Assembly: GCA_944389785.1 (NCBI GenBank)
Contig: CALXNP010000015.1
Coordinates: forward strand, 1-34,520
Direction of reading: 5' to 3'
Length of the DNA: 34,520 nt
Source of the DNA: an uncultured Anaerobiospirillum sp.
GTDB taxonomy: Bacteria > Pseudomonadota > Gammaproteobacteria > Enterobacterales > Succinivibrionaceae
The notes beneath the pieces were generated by a model. That model saw nothing but the letters and a program-made list of their open reading frames with translations, was not told the DNA's origin and searched no databases. A program made the position numbers and the translations under genes. Every line of letters begins with the position of its first letter. The first letter of the stretch is position 1. This document shows, one piece after another, positions 1,099 through 17,052 of this stretch.

Positions 1099-1965
1099 AT
1101 GACTTATCAAATCATTGATGGCAAAAACATTGCAAAAAAACTACGTGAAAATCTTAAACAAATTGTAGAAAAGTCTGTAGCTAATGGTCATAGACAACCT
1201 GCCCTAGCTGTAATTCTTGTTGGCAATAATCCTGCCTCACAAGTTTATGTGCGCAATAAGAAAAAAGCATGTGAAGAAATTGGTATTAAAACTATATCCT
1301 ATGAGCTTGAAGCTAATATTGGACAAGCTAAATTGTTAGAGCTTATTGAGCAATGTAATAATGATGCAAGCATTGATGGTATTTTAGTACAATTTCCACT
1401 TCCTAGTGATTATGATTACTGTGAAAGTCAAATTATAGAAAAAATTCTACCTACTAAAGATGTTGATGGTTTTCATCCTTACAATGTTGGCAGACTTTGT
1501 CAAAGAATTCCTAATATCTGTGCCTGTACTCCACATGGTGTTATGACTATGCTAAAAAGCATTAATTATGATGTCTTAGGTAAACATTGTGTAGTAGTAG
1601 GAGCTTCTAATATAGTAGGTCGACCTATGGCTCTTGAACTATTGTTAGCAGGGGCTACTGTGACTGTTACCCATAAGTTTACTCAAGATTTGAATTCTTT
1701 TATAAAACAAGCTGATGTATTAATAGTAGCTGTAGGTAAACCTAAATTTATTGATGGCAATTTAATAAAAGATGGTGCAGTAGTAATAGATGTAGGTATC
1801 AATCGTTTAGAAGATGGTAGTTTATGTGGTGATGTAGATTTTGAAACCGCAAAAGAACATGCTTCTTTTATTACTCCAGTACCTGGTGGTGTAGGCCCTA
1901 TGACTGTAGCTACATTAATGGAAAACACCATTATTGCCTATAAATCCCATGTAAATTTAGAATAA
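1099..1965 (+). CDS. folD: Bifunctional methylene-THF dehydrogenase / methenyl-THF cyclohydrolase
   Basis: FolD interconverts 5,10-methylene-, 5,10-methenyl- and 10-formyl-tetrahydrofolate with NADP in the cytoplasm, supplying one-carbon units for purines, formyl-Met-tRNA and methionine. The 288 residues match the family length. The active-site pair is visible as Y50 and K54 in [10 protein letters not shown], the conserved Asp as D121 in [10 protein letters not shown], and the NADP-binding loop as [10 protein letters not shown] at 168-177. The C-terminal [11 protein letters not shown] signature is intact. A clear AAGGAG site precedes the ATG. Second gene of the TSUP-folD-ldhA unit, with 14-base gaps on both sides. 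Confidence 0.97.
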
Positions 1966-10735: not shown

Positions 10736-11593
10736 TTATTCTTGATATTTAAATACAGGTATAGCAGCACCTTTATATTGTTCTATAACCAAGGCTGCTG
10801 TTTGTGCTTTTTGATATTCAGCTATAACTTTTTTAAGTATAGGATTATCCTTATCAGCTTTACGACAAATAACTACATTAACATAAGGATTGTCACTTTC
10901 TACCCCACCACCACTTAAATCAGAAAAAATTGCATCCTTAGCTGGATCTAATTTATTATCTACAGCATAGTTTGAGTTAACAATAGAAGCTGCTACATCA
11001 GGAATTAAACTTACAGTATTAGCAGCATCAACCTCATAAATTTTAATATGTTTTGGATTTTCAATAATATCCTTAACCTCTGGTGTATAGCCTTTACTTG
11101 GATCTAATTTAATAACATTAGCTTTTTCTAAAAGTTTTAATGCTCTGCCACCATTAGTTAAATCATTAGGTATAGCTATAGTATCCCCCTCTTTTAATTC
11201 ATCTAAGCTTTTAATTTTATCTGAATAAGCTGCAAGAGGTACAATAAAAGTATCAGATAAAATTTCAAAATCATAATTATGTGCTTTTGAATCTTCCTCT
11301 AAATAAGCTTTATGCTGAAAAGCATTTAAGTCAATTTCACCATCATTTAACACACGATTAGGTAATGAGTAATCAGCAAATTTAACAATAGTAAGTTTAA
11401 CATCTGAGCCCTCAAGACGTTTGCTTACAGCTTCCCATTCAGCATTATGCTCACCTACTAAGCCTATTTTTACCTCAGTAACATTAGACTCGCTTGTATT
11501 GCTTGTGTTAGTTTTAACATCTTTTGAGCAAGCACTCAAACCTAAAGCTAAAACAATTGCTGTTAAACTTAAAAAAGTATTTTTTAATTGCAT
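10736..11593 (-). CDS. metQ: Methionine-binding lipoprotein of the MetNIQ ABC transporter
   Basis: Periplasmic substrate-binding component, tethered to the inner membrane. The lipoprotein signal ends in a lipobox LSAC with the acylated cysteine at C22. The NlpA/MetQ fold is recognisable from IGLVGEHNAEWEAV near the start, the FAD-Y-rich region, LNAFQHKAYLE, and DTIAIPNDLTNGGRALKLLEK. Length 285 is typical. AAGGA lies 9 bases before the ATG. Last gene of metN-metI-oxidoreductase-metQ, 55 bases after the oxidoreductase gene with no terminator between, and ending at the shared terminator. Its likely cargo is L-methionine, and possibly D-methionine as known for the E. coli system. Confidence 0.93.
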   Translation of the reverse strand: MQLKNTFLSLTAIVLALGLSACSKDVKTNTSNTSESNVTEVKIGLVGEHNAEWEAVSKRLEGSDVKLTIVKFADYSLPNRVLNDGEIDLNAFQHKAYLEEDSKAHNYDFEILSDTFIVPLAAYSDKIKSLDELKEGDTIAIPNDLTNGGRALKLLEKANVIKLDPSKGYTPEVKDIIENPKHIKIYEVDAANTVSLIPDVAASIVNSNYAVDNKLDPAKDAIFSDLSGGGVESDNPYVNVVICRKADKDNPILKKVIAEYQKAQTAALVIEQYKGAAIPVFKYQE

Positions 11594-11648: not shown

Positions 11649-12980
11649 TTAAAGCTCAGATCCTGCCTCAAAATTTCTATAAGCAATAGTAGCATTTGCT
11701 CCAATAGCTCTAAATGGCTCTGGTGGCAGATAACTAGCCTTATAATTTTGCTTAATATAATTAAGCTCTGCAGAATCAATACCTAAAATCAGATGCGCAA
11801 GATAAGTACCCACAATAATGGCACGAGTTACACCAGAACCATCTGAAGTACTTGCTGCATAAACATTGTCAGCCATTTTTCCAAAAATAGGTAAAGTATT
11901 GCCAGTAAAAGCAATAAGACCACCATATAAATCTTTAAGCTTAATATCTTTAAGTTGAGGAAATCTTGCATAAAAAGCGTGATTTAACAATTTATAAGCT
12001 CTTAAAGCTCTTTGCTGTGAAGTATTTAAACTGCTTGCATAAGCTATATCTGTTCTAACAAAAATTCTTTTATCACGAGTAAAGCGTATAGTAGCTCCTG
12101 CTGGATGTGTTGCAGTAATACCCCATGGTTTTACCTTTGCCAAATTCCCTAAAATTTCATCATCTAAAACATCAGTCATAGCTCCAAAACTATGTATTGC
12201 AGTTAAATTTTTAGCTTGTTTTGGATAAAAGCACTTCAAAAAAGCATTGTTTAATACAATAATCTTAGAGCCTTTAATTACTCTTCCATCATTTAACTCT
12301 ATAGAAGGAACTAAGCCATCGTTAATCTTAATGACAGGAGTATTTTCATAAATAAATACATTTTTAGGCAATACAGTTGCCAAAGCACGTATTAACTCTG
12401 CTGGATTATTTAAATAGGTTTCATCTAAATATAAAGCCTTATTATAAAAATTAGTACCAAGGCGTGAAGCTAGATCATCTTTTGCTACATATTCATACTT
12501 CACATCAAGCTTATCAAAATATGAAGCTAAGAGATCTAAAGCCTTTTGATTACGTTCTTCACGTACAGCTTTATACATACCCTCTTTATCAAAATAAATA
12601 TCAAGTTTATGCTCTTTAATTTGAGATAAAACTATATCTAATGCCTTTTGATTTAATCTAAGTAGCCATTTTTGATCTTCTAAAGTAAATTTTTGTCTGC
12701 CAATTAAAGCTTTAGCAATTTGAGCAACAGAGAAAAACCCAGCATTGCGTCCTGAACTATTTTCTCCAATACTTAAAGCATCAACAAGCAAAATACTTTT
12801 TTCACTTTGTCTTTTAGCTAATTCTAAAGCAGCACTAACTCCTCCAAAACCTGCCCCTACTATGATGTAGTCATAGTTATTTTTTATATAATGATTATCT
12901 AAAAAACGTACATCTTTATATTTTGATAATTTCTGCCAAGGACTTTGTCCTATTTGATGTGGTAAAACTAAATTTGTCAT
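11649..12980 (-). CDS. FAD-dependent amine/amino-acid oxidoreductase (DAO family) inside the met transport operon
   Basis: A 443-residue DAO-superfamily flavoprotein. The dinucleotide-binding motif GAGFGG is at 42-47 in YDYIIVGAGFGG, followed by the FAD-contact signature SSGRNAGFF and a C-terminal second FAD region with YAASTSDGSGVTRA. Relatives oxidise amino acids or amines (D-amino-acid dehydrogenase, PuuB, sarcosine oxidase). No signal peptide or membrane helix, so cytoplasmic. AGGAG lies 6 bases before the ATG; the gene starts 13 bases after metI. The position inside a methionine transporter under a methionine-responsive leader suggests methionine, its D-form or an N-methyl derivative as substrate. 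That is inference from context only. Confidence 0.85.
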   Translation of the reverse strand: MTNLVLPHQIGQSPWQKLSKYKDVRFLDNHYIKNNYDYIIVGAGFGGVSAALELAKRQSEKSILLVDALSIGENSSGRNAGFFSVAQIAKALIGRQKFTLEDQKWLLRLNQKALDIVLSQIKEHKLDIYFDKEGMYKAVREERNQKALDLLASYFDKLDVKYEYVAKDDLASRLGTNFYNKALYLDETYLNNPAELIRALATVLPKNVFIYENTPVIKINDGLVPSIELNDGRVIKGSKIIVLNNAFLKCFYPKQAKNLTAIHSFGAMTDVLDDEILGNLAKVKPWGITATHPAGATIRFTRDKRIFVRTDIAYASSLNTSQQRALRAYKLLNHAFYARFPQLKDIKLKDLYGGLIAFTGNTLPIFGKMADNVYAASTSDGSGVTRAIIVGTYLAHLILGIDSAELNYIKQNYKASYLPPEPFRAIGANATIAYRNFEAGSEL

Positions 12981-12993
12981 AAAAAACTCCTAA

Positions 12994-13680
12994 TTATTTG
13001 TTATGATTTACTCTTTTTATTGCAAGATTGCCTACAAGCTGAATTATTGCCACCATGATTAAAATAATAACCACTGTTAAATAAGTAATGTCAGTTTGTC
13101 CTCTTTGATGACCATATCGTATAGCAAAATCACCAAGACCACCGCCACCTATAGCACCAGCCATAGCAGTAAGACCTAATAAAGACACAGCTGTAATTTG
13201 CACAACACGAATAAGTGGGGCAATACTTTCTTTTAGATATACTCTAAAGATGATAGCAAAGCGTGAACACCCCATAGATAAAGCAGCTTCTATTAAACCT
13301 TTATCAATTTGAGCCAGTACACTTTCTACCTGTCTTGCAAAAAAAGGTACTGTACCCACAACTAGTGGCACTATAGCTCCTGTTGTACCTATAGCACTAC
13401 CCACAATAAAACGTGATACAGGAATTAAAGCTGCCAATAAAATAACAAAAGGAATTGATCTAAATAAGTTAATTATGCTTTCAAGTATCTTATTGACATA
13501 AGCATTTTCATATAATCCGCCTTTTTTAGAAACAATTAACAATACACCTAAAAATAAACCAAAAATAAAGGCTAAAGAACCAGAATATAGCAACATAATT
13601 AAAGTTTGATAAATACTTGCATAAAGTTCATCTGTCTTATTAGCTACATTTGGGCTTAAAGCAATTAATAAATTATCCAT
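12994..13680 (-). CDS. metI: Methionine ABC transporter permease
   Basis: Inner-membrane permease subunit of MetNIQ, 228 residues with five to six helices. The EAA loop that docks on the ATPase is visible as IEAALSMGCSRFAIIFRVYLKES. I place the start at the ATG at 13680 rather than the TTG five codons upstream: GAGGAG sits 7 bases before this ATG and MDNLLIALSP is a natural beginning. With this start the gene overlaps the metN stop by 8 bases (ATGGATAA), indicating translational coupling. Confidence 0.95.
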   Translation of the reverse strand: MDNLLIALSPNVANKTDELYASIYQTLIMLLYSGSLAFIFGLFLGVLLIVSKKGGLYENAYVNKILESIINLFRSIPFVILLAALIPVSRFIVGSAIGTTGAIVPLVVGTVPFFARQVESVLAQIDKGLIEAALSMGCSRFAIIFRVYLKESIAPLIRVVQITAVSLLGLTAMAGAIGGGGLGDFAIRYGHQRGQTDITYLTVVIILIMVAIIQLVGNLAIKRVNHNK

Positions 13681-14707
13681 GTAATAACTCCTCAACTTTA
13701 ACGTTTTTAGCTTTTAAATAAGCAATTGCTGATCGAATATCTTCTTGTTTGCCTGATAACACACCAACGGTACCACCAACAGGACTATTATTAATAAGTT
13801 CAATATCTGCGTATAAGATATTCATGATTAAATTAAATTTATGGCTTATATTTGAGATTAAAGGTTCACTAATGCCTTTGTCTGTATAAAGTAATCTTAC
13901 TAATACATCATTTTCTTGTAGATTAAGCAGATGACTTTTAGCTAACAATTTATCAATCTTGTTAAGATTAGAACTTTTATTAATAAAGGATATAGCAGCT
14001 TTTGAGCTTGGATTGGCAAATACATCAAACACATCTGCACATTCAACTACTTGACCATGCTCCATCACTGCAACTTTATTACAAATTTGCTTAACTACAG
14101 CAAGTTCATGTGTAATTAACACTATGGTTAATTTAAGTTTTTGATTTAATGTTTTTAATAATTCTAAAATCTCATGTGTTGAATTTGGATCTAGAGCTGA
14201 GGTAGCTTCATCACATAATAAAATCTTAGGATCATTTGCTAAAGCTCTAGCTATAGCTACTCTTTGCTTTTGACCACCTGATAATTCATGTACATAATTA
14301 TTAGCTTTTGAAGAAAGACCTACAAGTTCTAATAAATCTAAAGCTTTTTTAACACGCTGTGATTTTTTTATACCTTTGTAAGCTAGAGGAAAAAGTACAT
14401 TATCTAGAACATTACGTGATGGCATTAAGTTAAAATGCTGAAAAATAAAACCTATCTTACTTCTTTTTTCACGTAACTGTTTTTCATTTAAACTTAAAAG
14501 CTCATCATTATCAACAATAATAGATGAACCTTCATCAGGTCTTTCAAGTAAATTTAAGCAGCGTACTAAGGTAGACTTACCTGCACCAGAAAAACCAATA
14601 ATACCAAAAATATCTTGAGGTTTAATATGTAGATTAATATTCTCTAAAGCTTTAAAGCAATTATTACCTTGATAAAAATGCTTATTTAAATTACTAATTT
14701 TGATCAT
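13673..14707 (-). CDS. metN: Methionine ABC transporter ATP-binding protein
   Basis: ATPase that drives methionine import through MetI. Walker A is GFSGAGKS at 38-45, the ABC signature LSGGQ at 142-146, Walker B ILLCDEAT with D166-E167, and the switch histidine lies in LITHELAV. Residues about 260-344 form the C-terminal NIL regulatory domain, which in E. coli MetN binds methionine and inhibits transport at high internal levels. Length 344 agrees with E. coli. AAAGGG lies 6 bases before the ATG. First structural gene after the attenuator leader described separately. Confidence 0.97.
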   Translation of the reverse strand: MIKISNLNKHFYQGNNCFKALENINLHIKPQDIFGIIGFSGAGKSTLVRCLNLLERPDEGSSIIVDNDELLSLNEKQLREKRSKIGFIFQHFNLMPSRNVLDNVLFPLAYKGIKKSQRVKKALDLLELVGLSSKANNYVHELSGGQKQRVAIARALANDPKILLCDEATSALDPNSTHEILELLKTLNQKLKLTIVLITHELAVVKQICNKVAVMEHGQVVECADVFDVFANPSSKAAISFINKSSNLNKIDKLLAKSHLLNLQENDVLVRLLYTDKGISEPLISNISHKFNLIMNILYADIELINNSPVGGTVGVLSGKQEDIRSAIAYLKAKNVKVEELLHG

Positions 14708-14748
14708 TTGTTACCCTTTTATTATGTTTTAATTTATTGCTTGAGGTT

Positions 14749-14787
14749 ACAAATGGTCTATTTAGCGAAAAAAAAGAGACCATTTGT
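14749..14787 (-). promoter_or_regulatory. 11-bp inverted repeat competing with the terminator's 3' arm
   Basis: ACAAATGGTCT (14787-14777 on the minus strand) and AGACCATTTGT (14759-14749) are perfect complements separated by 17 bases containing the terminator T-run. The upstream arm includes most of the loop and 3' arm of the met terminator, so the two hairpins exclude one another. It can form only in transcripts that have passed the terminator. Possible roles are stabilising read-through mRNA or controlling access to metN, whose start is 41 bases downstream. Confidence 0.55.
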
Positions 14788-14799
14788 AGTGGCCTCTTT
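14768..14799 (-). terminator. Attenuator terminator in the metN leader
   Basis: On the minus strand AAAGAGGCC (14799-14791), loop ACTACAAAT, GGTCTCTTT (14781-14773): nine-bp stem with one G-T pair, running into eight T ending at 14768. It lies 25 bases after the leader ORF stop and 60 bases before metN, so as an intrinsic terminator it would stop transcription before the transport genes. Confidence 0.85.
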
Positions 14800-14849
14800 A
14801 CCGCATAAAAAAACTTAAATTTAACTATTTCTTACAGGAATAGAGGCCA
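14790..14849 (-). promoter_or_regulatory. Predicted antiterminator pairing of the met attenuator
   Basis: TGGCCTCT (14849-14842, inside the leader ORF just after its last Met codon) is exactly complementary to AGAGGCCA (14797-14790, the 5' arm of the terminator). Pairing would prevent terminator formation. A competing upstream partner GGCCA (14885-14881) can pair with TGGCC (14849-14845) when no ribosome is present. This gives the 1:2, 2:3, 3:4 logic of ribosome-mediated attenuators. Confidence 0.7.
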
Positions 14850-14965
14850 ATAAACATACGCATGTACATATGCATTGACATGGCCATCATAAAGAATAAA
14901 GATGCAATCTTAGTATTGTTTACTAAGATATTAGTATTTATATTTACTAAAGTTAATATCTGCAT
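14825..14965 (-). CDS. Methionine-rich leader peptide of the metNI-FAD-metQ operon
   Basis: A 46-residue ORF with ATG at 14965 and TAG at 14825-14827, not a member of any known protein family. Residues 26-37 read MMAMSMHMYMRM, seven methionines in twelve, followed by FIGLYSCKK. A weak AGGA (14976-14979) lies 10 bases before the ATG. Alternatively translation starts at the Met pair itself (ATG at 14890), giving a 21-residue peptide, but that ATG has no Shine-Dalgarno sequence. Position just before an intrinsic terminator, overlap with the antiterminator sequence and location upstream of methionine-transport genes argue for a control peptide whose translation senses Met-tRNA supply. A copper-binding Met-rich peptide is a less likely alternative. 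Confidence 0.78.
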   Translation of the reverse strand: MQILTLVNINTNILVNNTKIASLFFMMAMSMHMYMRMFIGLYSCKK

Positions 14966-14968
14966 CTT
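14899..14968 (-). ncRNA. Predicted three-way-junction fold in the met leader RNA
   Basis: Reading the minus strand, AAGATGCA (14968-14961) pairs with TGCATCTT (14906-14899) to close P1 (8 bp). GATATTA (14960-14954) pairs with TAATATC (14933-14927) as P2 (7 bp). ATCTTAGTA (14929-14921) pairs with TACTAAGAT (14915-14907) as P3 (up to 9 bp, sharing three bases with P2). There are almost no unpaired junction bases. The start codon at 14965 lies within P1. It does not match any riboswitch class I know. Confidence 0.45.
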
Positions 14969-15010
14969 AAATTCATCCTAAAAATTTTTATTAAAAAGTA
15001 GATGATAAAT

Positions 15011-15039
15011 ATATTATGTGAAAATTTATTTAAAGTCAA
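15011..15039 (-). promoter_or_regulatory. Sigma-70 promoter of the met transport operon
   Basis: On the minus strand TTGACT (15039-15034), 17 bases, TAATAT (15016-15011), the best sigma-70 match in the window. Predicted start near 15004 gives about 40 bases before the leader ORF and about 300 before metN. No MetJ-type AGACGTCT repeats are visible. Confidence 0.8.
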
Positions 15040-15297: not shown

Positions 15298-17052
15298 ATG
15301 TTTAATAAATTTTCTCTTAAAGCTAAAATGCTTATATTAAGCGCAGGTTTAGCTATTAGCTTTGTAGTCTTACTTATAATTATAGCTATTAATGAAGCTA
15401 GTCTACTAAAAAACACCAACACACAAATAAAATCTTTGATACAAGCGGAAATTGAACAAAAAATTAAATTAGCCACTGATAGTGCTGCTAATTTATTAGG
15501 TGATCTTGTTGTTGGTTTAAGTGAAGAAGAGCAAATAGCTGTTATAGCTCAAGCTATTGAAAAATTTAGATTTGAAGATGATAAATCTGGTTACTTTTTT
15601 GTATATAAAGAATATGTTCCTGTAGCTCATCCAACTCGTAAAGATTTACTTGGTAAATCTTTATACGAAGCTAAGGATGAAAATGGTGTTTACTATGTAA
15701 GAGATCTATTTGAAACCGCTAAAACTCAAGGAACAAAAACACAATTTGTTTACTTTACCTTTTCAAAGCCTCTGCCTGATGGCACTTTAACTACAGCCTC
15801 AAAAGTAGGCTATGCTGCTATGATACCTAATACACAAAATATTTGGATCTCAACTGGTGTCTATGTAGATACTCTAGAACCTTATGCTAATAGTATCTCT
15901 GTTAAAATTACGGATGATATTAAAAGCAGTATCACAAAAGCTTTAATCTATGCTTTTATTGCCTTTACTGTAATTTCAATTCCTTTGTTCTACACTTTTT
16001 ATAATAATATTACTCAAAGTGTACAAAAGCTCAATCACAATATCAAAAACTTCTTTAAATACTTTAACCACGAAATTAAAGATTTCGACTTTGTTGATAT
16101 TAATGCTCAAGATGAATTTGGCATTATGTCACAATTAATTAAACAAAATATAATTACAAGCAAAAAGGGGCTTGAACAAGACGATCAAGCTATTGCTACT
16201 GTAGTTAAAACAGTACATGAAATTGATAAAGGTAATTTAGCAGTTAGAGTAAATGCACAAGTAACTAACCCTCATTTAAAAGAATTACTTACTGTATTAA
16301 ACTCTATGCTTGATACTCTAGAAAATAAAATTGGCTCTAATTTAAATAATCTATTAAGTATCTTTAAATCTTATCAAAATTTGGATTTCACAAAAGTTAT
16401 TGATAATGCTAAAGGTAATGCCGAGCTTGCAATAAATAATTTAGGTCAGCAAATGTGTAGTAACCTTAGTGCTTCTAAAAACTACGCTAACATGCTATGT
16501 GAACAAACAGAAGTTTTAAATAACTCTATGACTAAACTTTTAGAATCAAGTTCTTCTCAAGAACGTTCTATTCAAAGCTCTGCAGCTTCAATTGAACAAA
16601 TTAGTGTCTCTATGCAAAATGTTGCTACTAAAACTAATGAAGTTAGCAATTATGCAGAAGATATTAAAAAGGTTGTAGCTGTAATTAAAGATATTGCAGA
16701 ACAAACAGATCTACTTGCACTAAACGCAGCTATTGAGGCAGCACGTGCAGGTGAACATGGTCGCGGATTTGCGGTAGTAGCAGATGAAGTTCGTCAATTA
16801 TCAATGCGCACAAGCAAATCACTTAGTGATATTGAGACTAATGTAGGTGTACTTGTTCAAGGTATGGAAGATATGAATAATTCTATCAAAGAACAAACTG
16901 ATGGTATTAATCATATCAATGACGCTATAATCTCGCTTGAAAATGTTATCAATGCTAACGTACAGGTAGTAGATGAAACTAATGCTATAACACGTAATGT
17001 TAAGGATATTGCAGATAAAATTTTATCTGATGTAGCTTCTAAAAAGTTTTAA
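15298..17052 (+). CDS. Methyl-accepting chemotaxis protein with sCache sensor domain
   Basis: Inner-membrane chemoreceptor, 584 residues. A first membrane helix (about 11-32) is followed by a periplasmic sCache_2-type domain (about 45-195) containing [26 protein letters not shown] and [13 protein letters not shown] second helix (about 205-226) and a HAMP-like linker follow. The signalling hairpin tip lies within 468-502 ([26 protein letters not shown]). sCache_2 receptors often sense small organic acids; the ligand here is unknown. There is no CheR-binding pentapeptide at the C-terminus. AAGG lies 8 bases before the ATG. Divergent from the met operon; their leaders share the intergenic region, but nothing shows the receptor senses methionine. 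Confidence 0.93.

What the first reader, a model, noticed from the sequence alone, without database searches (positions are those of the whole stretch)
14768..15039. Candidate methionine-responsive transcription attenuator with a Met-rich leader peptide
Seen directly: a near-consensus sigma-70 promoter, a leader ORF with MMAMSMHMYMRM (7 Met in 12 codons), TGGCCTCT right after the Met codons, an exact complement AGAGGCCA forming the 5' arm of a terminator with eight T, then metN. Established: his, thr, trp, phe, leu and ilv operons of Gammaproteobacteria use this arrangement, where ribosome stalling at scarce-aminoacyl-tRNA codons frees the antiterminator. Inference: the system senses Met-tRNA and induces methionine uptake when methionine is short. 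Known methionine control in this class is MetJ, and elsewhere SAM riboswitches or T-boxes; I know of no well-described Met leader-peptide attenuator here. A point of subtlety is that elongator Met-tRNA, not initiator, would be sensed.
Basis: partly seen in the sequence, partly recalled or inferred. Interest (0 to 1): 0.93.

Follow-up and report, generated by a model that had tools for sequence, protein, structure and literature searches.

The report
Methionine-sensing leader peptide before methionine importer
Just before the genes for a methionine importer, this bacterium carries a tiny methionine-rich reading frame and a switchable RNA stop signal; evidence from relatives suggests that it turns the importer on when methionine runs short, a kind of switch well known for other amino acids but hardly described for methionine.

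Summary
Upstream of metN, on the minus strand, lie a 46-codon ORF with 7 Met in 12 codons, an arm TGGCCTCT, its exact complement AGAGGCCA, and an intrinsic terminator with eight T. None of 20,000 shuffles reached 7 Met, and this is the only intergenic (ATGNNN)3ATG in the genome.

Relatives support the interpretation. Met-run leaders precede metN (once metQ) in five Succinivibrionaceae genomes and twelve loci of Clostridia type. The arms differ in sequence yet keep pairing in several. Other Firmicutes carry T-boxes or SAM riboswitches there, never together with a Met leader. MetJ is absent from all 57 family genomes searched; the host also lacks a SAM riboswitch, MetH and a canonical MetE.

Best explanation: a trp/his-type transcription attenuator sensing elongator Met-tRNA. 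Translation and methionine response are untested. One weaker precedent was found, metL of Streptomyces lividans (PMC8079986). Twist: most leaders in relatives also hold Cys codons, and S. dextrinosolvens has a Cys-rich leader without a Met run on the same operon.

The parts
15011..15039 (-). Candidate sigma-70 promoter, TTGACT-17-TAATAT; transcription start would fall near 15004
   Evidence: Sequence; pattern scan 9 of 12. Weak alone, as such sites are common in this AT-rich DNA.
14825..14965 (-). Leader ORF, 46 codons, AGGA-type ribosome site upstream (TTTTTAGGATGAATTTAAGATG)
   Evidence: Sequence, translation
14855..14890 (-). Regulatory Met run MMAMSMHMYMRM (7 Met in 12 codons)
   Evidence: 0 of 20,000 shuffles reach 7; only intergenic (ATGNNN)3ATG in the genome
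14842..14849 (-). Antiterminator 5' arm (segment 2) TGGCCTCT, inside the leader ORF, 5 nt after the last Met codon
   Evidence: Exact complement of 14797-14790; duplex -14.8 kcal/mol, shuffle p about 0.001
14790..14849 (-). Antiterminator hairpin (segments 2:3), with an inner stem that includes the leader stop codon
   Evidence: -19.6 kcal/mol, z -4.18
14790..14797 (-). Segment 3, AGAGGCCA, shared by antiterminator and terminator
   Evidence: Sequence
14768..14799 (-). Intrinsic terminator (segments 3:4) with eight T
   Evidence: 10-bp stem, -11.9 kcal/mol, z -4.66
14744..14788 (-). Extra 12-bp hairpin that pairs segment 4 with a segment 5 downstream of the T tract; role unknown
   Evidence: -15.5 kcal/mol, z -7.78
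13673..14707 (-). metN, ATPase of a MetNIQ-type importer with NIL domain
   Evidence: NCBIfam ABC_MetN 366 bits, best family but below the equivalog cut-off of 499.7; Pfam NIL above cut-off
12994..13695 (-). metI, permease
   Evidence: NCBIfam MetI 180 bits, below the cut-off of 212
11649..12980 (-). FAD-dependent (DAO family) oxidoreductase kept with the transporter genes in relatives
   Evidence: Pfam DAO; found beside metN or metQ in relatives
10736..11593 (-). metQ, substrate-binding lipoprotein
   Evidence: Pfam Lipoprotein_9 247 bits; NCBIfam MetQ 200 bits, below cut-off

Best explanation
This is a ribosome-mediated transcription attenuator of the trp/his kind whose control codons are Met. 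When Met-tRNA is charged, the ribosome runs through the Met codons to the leader stop at 14827-14825; it then sits on the inner part of the antiterminator stem, segment 3 is free to pair with segment 4, and transcription stops at the eight T before metN. When charged elongator Met-tRNA is scarce, the ribosome stalls in the early Met codons (14890 to about 14866), segment 2 (14849-14842) stays free, pairs with segment 3, and transcription runs on into metN-metI-oxidoreductase-metQ. Shown: the sequence elements, their departure from chance, and their recurrence in relatives. Inferred: translation of the ORF, stalling, and the methionine response.
For: All parts of a classic attenuator are in the right order and spacing. 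At least 5 Met in 12 codons occurs upstream of metN in 13 of 116 loci, against 0 on the reverse strand, 0 further upstream and 0 of 2,320 shuffles. Five Succinivibrionaceae genomes have a Met leader, with a terminator after it in each, and segments 2 and 3 pair with shuffle p of 0.03 or less in four of the five plus L091, although the arm sequences all differ. Orthologous metN of other Firmicutes have T-boxes (26 loci) or SAM riboswitches (6 loci) upstream, never together with a Met leader. The MetN tree puts the Succinivibrionaceae clade that holds the leaders in one supported group with leader-bearing Clostridia. Other methionine controls are missing: MetJ in 0 of 57 genomes of the family, SAM riboswitch 0 in the host. 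The host lacks MetH and a canonical MetE (only a short 24.5-bit relative), so methionine import should matter. The neighbour upstream of the leader is divergent (15298-17052 +), so the terminator cannot be that gene's own.
Against: No transcript, ribosome or growth data. Segment 2:3 pairing is not better than chance in L018 (p 0.69), and in most Clostridia leaders no simple antiterminator was found, so their mechanism may differ. Other Succinivibrionaceae metN of the same clade (e.g. L013, L020, L022, L038, L040) show no Met leader. Folds without a ribosome favour the antiterminator, so untranslated RNA would read through unless a segment 1 protects it; segment 1 is only loosely identifiable (GGCCA at 14885-14881). 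The transporter proteins score below NCBIfam cut-offs, so methionine as substrate is itself inferred. The host has no close relative in the collections used, so column-by-column covariation could not be counted.
Confidence: 0.86

Rival explanations
1. The leader reports sulfur amino acids in general: in the family it senses Met and Cys charging together, and the host is one Met-only end of a range. This extends rather than replaces the main explanation.
For: 21 of 103 non-Met residues in 16 Met windows are Cys, binomial p 2e-11 against 2/61 (windows from related loci are not independent). S. dextrinosolvens and relatives carry a conserved leader ORF ending CSCFCCSRM or similar before the same operon. 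S. lividans metL reads CMCRRMC (PMC8079986).
Against: The host's run has no Cys; its single Cys lies after segment 2, where a stall would not free the antiterminator. Cys codons between Met codons also make GCATGTGCATG self-complementary, which might be an RNA-level reason.
Confidence: 0.3
2. An arrest peptide: methionine or SAM bound by the ribosome or the nascent chain stalls translation, TnaC-style, rather than uncharged tRNA.
For: The N-terminal 25 residues could serve as a tunnel segment (sequence only).
Against: Apart from the Met/Cys run the peptide sequences look unrelated between most loci, unlike arrest peptides, which need fixed residues.
Confidence: 0.05
3. A metal-sensing leader: Met- and Cys-rich peptides bind copper and could control the operon through metal.
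For: MxM and CxxCC spacings resemble Cu(I)-binding motifs (own knowledge, not tested).
Against: The downstream genes are a MetNIQ-type importer, and orthologous genes carry T-boxes or SAM riboswitches, which sense tRNA or SAM.
Confidence: 0.04
4. Chance: a random Met-rich frame beside an unrelated terminator.
For: AT-rich DNA has many short ORFs and promoter-like sites.
Against: Shuffle, reverse-strand, far-upstream and whole-genome controls and recurrence in 17 loci.
Confidence: 0.02

Closest known systems
Leader-peptide transcription attenuators of Gammaproteobacteria (trp, his, thr, leu, ilv, phe)
   Same: Short ORF with a run of the codon of the regulated amino acid, then mutually exclusive antiterminator and intrinsic terminator before the operon
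   Different: Control codon is Met, and the target is an importer rather than a biosynthetic operon
metL of Streptomyces lividans TK24, upstream of metNIQ (PMC8079986)
   Same: Proposed leader peptide with Met (and Cys) codons before a methionine importer operon
   Different: Three Met in a 29-residue leaderless ORF (start Met counted) and, by the authors' account, no typical Rho-independent terminator; here 7 Met in 12 codons with terminator and antiterminator
T-boxes and SAM riboswitches upstream of metN in Firmicutes
   Same: Same place before an orthologous gene; both commonly act by transcription attenuation, and T-boxes also read tRNA charging
   Different: No ORF; the RNA itself binds tRNA or SAM. 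No Rfam match at this locus
Histidine leader peptides of bacilli in place of T-boxes before hisS/hisZ (PMC2965389)
   Same: Precedent for exchange between T-box and leader peptide on related genes
   Different: Histidine, tRNA synthetase genes
Cys-codon leaders (mycobacterial cys operons, PMC1262725; cysS of Rhodobacterales, uORFC-8-2 in PMC8632094)
   Same: Run of sulfur amino acid codons before a cognate gene
   Different: Cys rather than Met; the mycobacterial ones lack a conserved terminator hairpin

Membership tests
Leader-peptide (trp/his-type) transcription attenuator | Short ORF with start and ribosome site between promoter and operon | tested here: met
   14965-14825; translation itself not shown
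Leader-peptide (trp/his-type) transcription attenuator | Run of codons for the amino acid of the downstream pathway | tested here: met
   7 Met in 12 codons before a MetNIQ-type operon
Leader-peptide (trp/his-type) transcription attenuator | Intrinsic terminator before the first gene | tested here: met
   14799-14768
Leader-peptide (trp/his-type) transcription attenuator | Mutually exclusive antiterminator whose 5' arm lies downstream of the control codons | tested here: met
   14849-14842 with 14797-14790
Leader-peptide (trp/his-type) transcription attenuator | Protector hairpin 1:2 for untranslated RNA | tested here: inconclusive
   Only a 5-bp GGCCA/TGGCC candidate seen by eye; folds did not favour it
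Leader-peptide (trp/his-type) transcription attenuator | Conservation of codon run and alternative pairing in relatives | tested here: met
   Four further Succinivibrionaceae genomes have the run; arms pair in L009, L011, L021 but not clearly in L018
Leader-peptide (trp/his-type) transcription attenuator | Termination responds to charging of the cognate tRNA | not testable with these tools
   Needs experiment
T-box leader | Match to RF00230 | tested here: not met
   No match in the window or L001; the only T-box found in the genome is before trpE
SAM riboswitch | Match to RF00162 | tested here: not met
   None in the genome or the window
MetJ regulon | Presence of the MetJ repressor | tested here: not met
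   0 of 57 genomes of the family; E. coli control positive

The most novel reading that the evidence does not exclude
Leader-peptide attenuation by Met codons, often Met and Cys together, is a widespread and largely undescribed control of methionine import in Succinivibrionaceae and Clostridia. It takes the place of T-boxes and SAM riboswitches on orthologous genes, and it can shift to Cys sensing on the same operon.
Probability: 0.6. Interest if true: 0.72.

Novelty: new variant of a known kind. Interest (0 to 1): 0.66.

Why it matters
Methionine is not among the amino acids with an established leader-peptide attenuator (own knowledge); the one proposal found (S. lividans) lacked a typical terminator. 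Here the full anatomy is present in a family without MetJ, which offers a regulator for that gap, and the same slot carries T-box, SAM riboswitch, Met leader, Met/Cys leader or Cys leader in relatives. That makes the exchange of regulators on one operon directly testable. Because every ORF starts with Met, the case also asks how a leader tells shortage of elongator from initiator Met-tRNA.

Tried and rejected
First upstream scan ignored strand, since whole-genome loci are not turned; repeated correctly. (ATGNNN)3ATG over the family matches in every genome and the list was cut, so it was not informative there. Gammaproteobacteria outside the family: 26 metN loci have at most 2 Met per 12 codons; Cys-rich frames there were inspected by eye and look like parts of upstream genes or chance. 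In most Clostridia leaders no simple segment 2:3 antiterminator was found. The script stopped with an error at L061, so the combined p-value was never computed and L042 was not tested; its finder missed the terminator of L060, which is visible and folds. Rfam gave nothing at the locus. Literature searches found no other Met leader.

Full report
Observation. Reading the minus strand from 15039: TTGACT-17-TAATAT, then an ORF from 14965 to 14825 encoding MQILTLVNINTNILVNNTKIASLFFMMAMSMHMYMRMFIGLYSCKK, with the Met run at 14890-14855; TGGCCTCT at 14849-14842; AGAGGCCA at 14797-14790; a 10-bp stem and eight T ending at 14768; then metN from 14707. The downstream genes are metN with NIL domain, metI, a DAO-type oxidoreductase and metQ. 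The upstream neighbour (15298-17052 +, a methyl-accepting chemotaxis protein by its domains) is divergent, so the terminator belongs to a transcript that starts between the two genes.

Chance. In 20,000 dinucleotide shuffles of the 400 nt upstream of metN the best run had 5 Met in 12 codons, once; the locus has 7. In the host genome (ATGNNN)3ATG occurs at a handful of places: all others lie inside longer open frames, one of them in frame, and only this leader is intergenic. The segment after the Met run pairs with the terminator's 5' arm about as well as the best 1 in 1000 shuffles. Antiterminator -19.6 kcal/mol (z -4.18), terminator -11.9 (z -4.66).

Relatives. The host lies in Succinivibrionaceae, judged from its nearest named MetN relatives and the family-level genome set. 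In 116 metN upstream regions, 13 have at least 5 Met in 12 codons; the reverse strands, the far-upstream stretches and 2,320 shuffles have none. With the 4-Met cases L011, L021 and L042 and one leader before metQ (L063) there are 17 loci: five Succinivibrionaceae genomes (G000, G012, G034, G039, G042) and twelve loci of Clostridia type (Oscillibacter, Agathobaculum, Lacrimispora, Hungatella and others; L053 is labelled only as an uncultured bacterium). An intrinsic terminator follows in 13 of the 14 that the script tested, and L060 has one by eye. In L001, L009, L011, L021 and L091 the arms pair with shuffle p of 0.03 or less although their sequences differ (TTGGCCTCTA/AAGAGGCCA; CGGGGAGCTGTTG/AAACGGAGCCCC; AGCTCCCG/AGGGAGCC; TGCTTTCCC/AGGGAAGC; AGATGACCGCGTC/AACCGGTCATC). 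It is not shown for L018 or most Clostridia. Not every relative has it: several MetN of the same Succinivibrionaceae clade show no Met leader.

Exchange of regulators. T-boxes lie upstream of metN in 26 loci and SAM riboswitches in 6; none of these has a Met leader. On the MetN tree the labels are clustered: six changes for four labels, 22.9 in shuffles. The Succinivibrionaceae clade (100/100) sits within a supported group of 48 MetN (98/89) that otherwise holds mostly Clostridia. This fits horizontal transfer, possibly with the leader, but the number of origins is open.

Other controls in the host. MetJ is missing from all 57 family genomes while the E. coli control rings. No SAM riboswitch. 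MetH is not found, and PF01717 finds only a short 24.5-bit relative and no canonical MetE. The host therefore probably depends on imported methionine; that is inference from absence in a genome rated 99% complete.

Mechanism. A stall at the early Met codons leaves segment 2 free to pair with segment 3; a ribosome at the stop codon covers the inner antiterminator stem, so 3:4 forms. A stall at the last Met codons would cover segment 2, so the early codons should carry the response; this is a prediction. Without a ribosome the fold prefers the antiterminator, so either translation is tightly coupled to transcription or a weak segment 1 acts.

Cys. In 16 Met windows Cys makes up 21 of 103 non-Met residues (p 2e-11 against 2/61; the windows are not all independent). 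In G030, G031, G032 and G046 the operon is preceded by an ORF with a conserved start MSAVVS and end CCSRM and no Met run; in the two read in full, L039 and L041, the oxidoreductase gene comes first. So the sensed amino acid appears to drift between Met and Cys on one operon.

Literature. The library searched holds open-licence papers only. The only Met leader found is metL of S. lividans (PMC8079986). PMC1262725 reports no conserved RNA structure for methionine operons in Actinobacteria. PMC2965389 documents T-box/leader peptide exchange for hisS. Absence elsewhere is not proof of novelty.

Verdict. A complete and comparatively supported Met-codon attenuator at the level of sequence: a known kind of device with a new specificity and an informative distribution, awaiting an experiment.

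Noticed in passing
L162 1501-1763 (-), genome contig C49 16796-17058: A T-box (RF00230, 95.8 bits) lies directly upstream of trpE in this gammaproteobacterium, with an apparent UGG (Trp) specifier read by eye.
   Followed up: partly
L166 about 1528-1645 (reverse complement), L163-L165 likewise: Succinivibrio relatives carry a conserved Cys-rich leader ORF (MSAVVS...CCSRM) before the oxidoreductase-metQ-metN operon, without a T tract but with a hairpin near the ribosome site.
   Followed up: partly
window 14788-14744: A very stable extra hairpin (z -7.8) pairs the terminator's 3' arm with a segment beyond the T tract; L009 does not appear to share it. Role unknown.
   Followed up: no
L059, L055, L064, L044 just upstream of metN: Some Treponema and Lachnospiraceae metN upstream regions hold palindromes such as CCTACTAACTTAGTAGG (L059), possibly a repressor operator.
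   Followed up: no
L176-L201; L023, L024, L025: 26 gammaproteobacterial metN outside the family show no Met leader; more distant Succinivibrionaceae metN (about 50% identical) also show none.
   Followed up: partly
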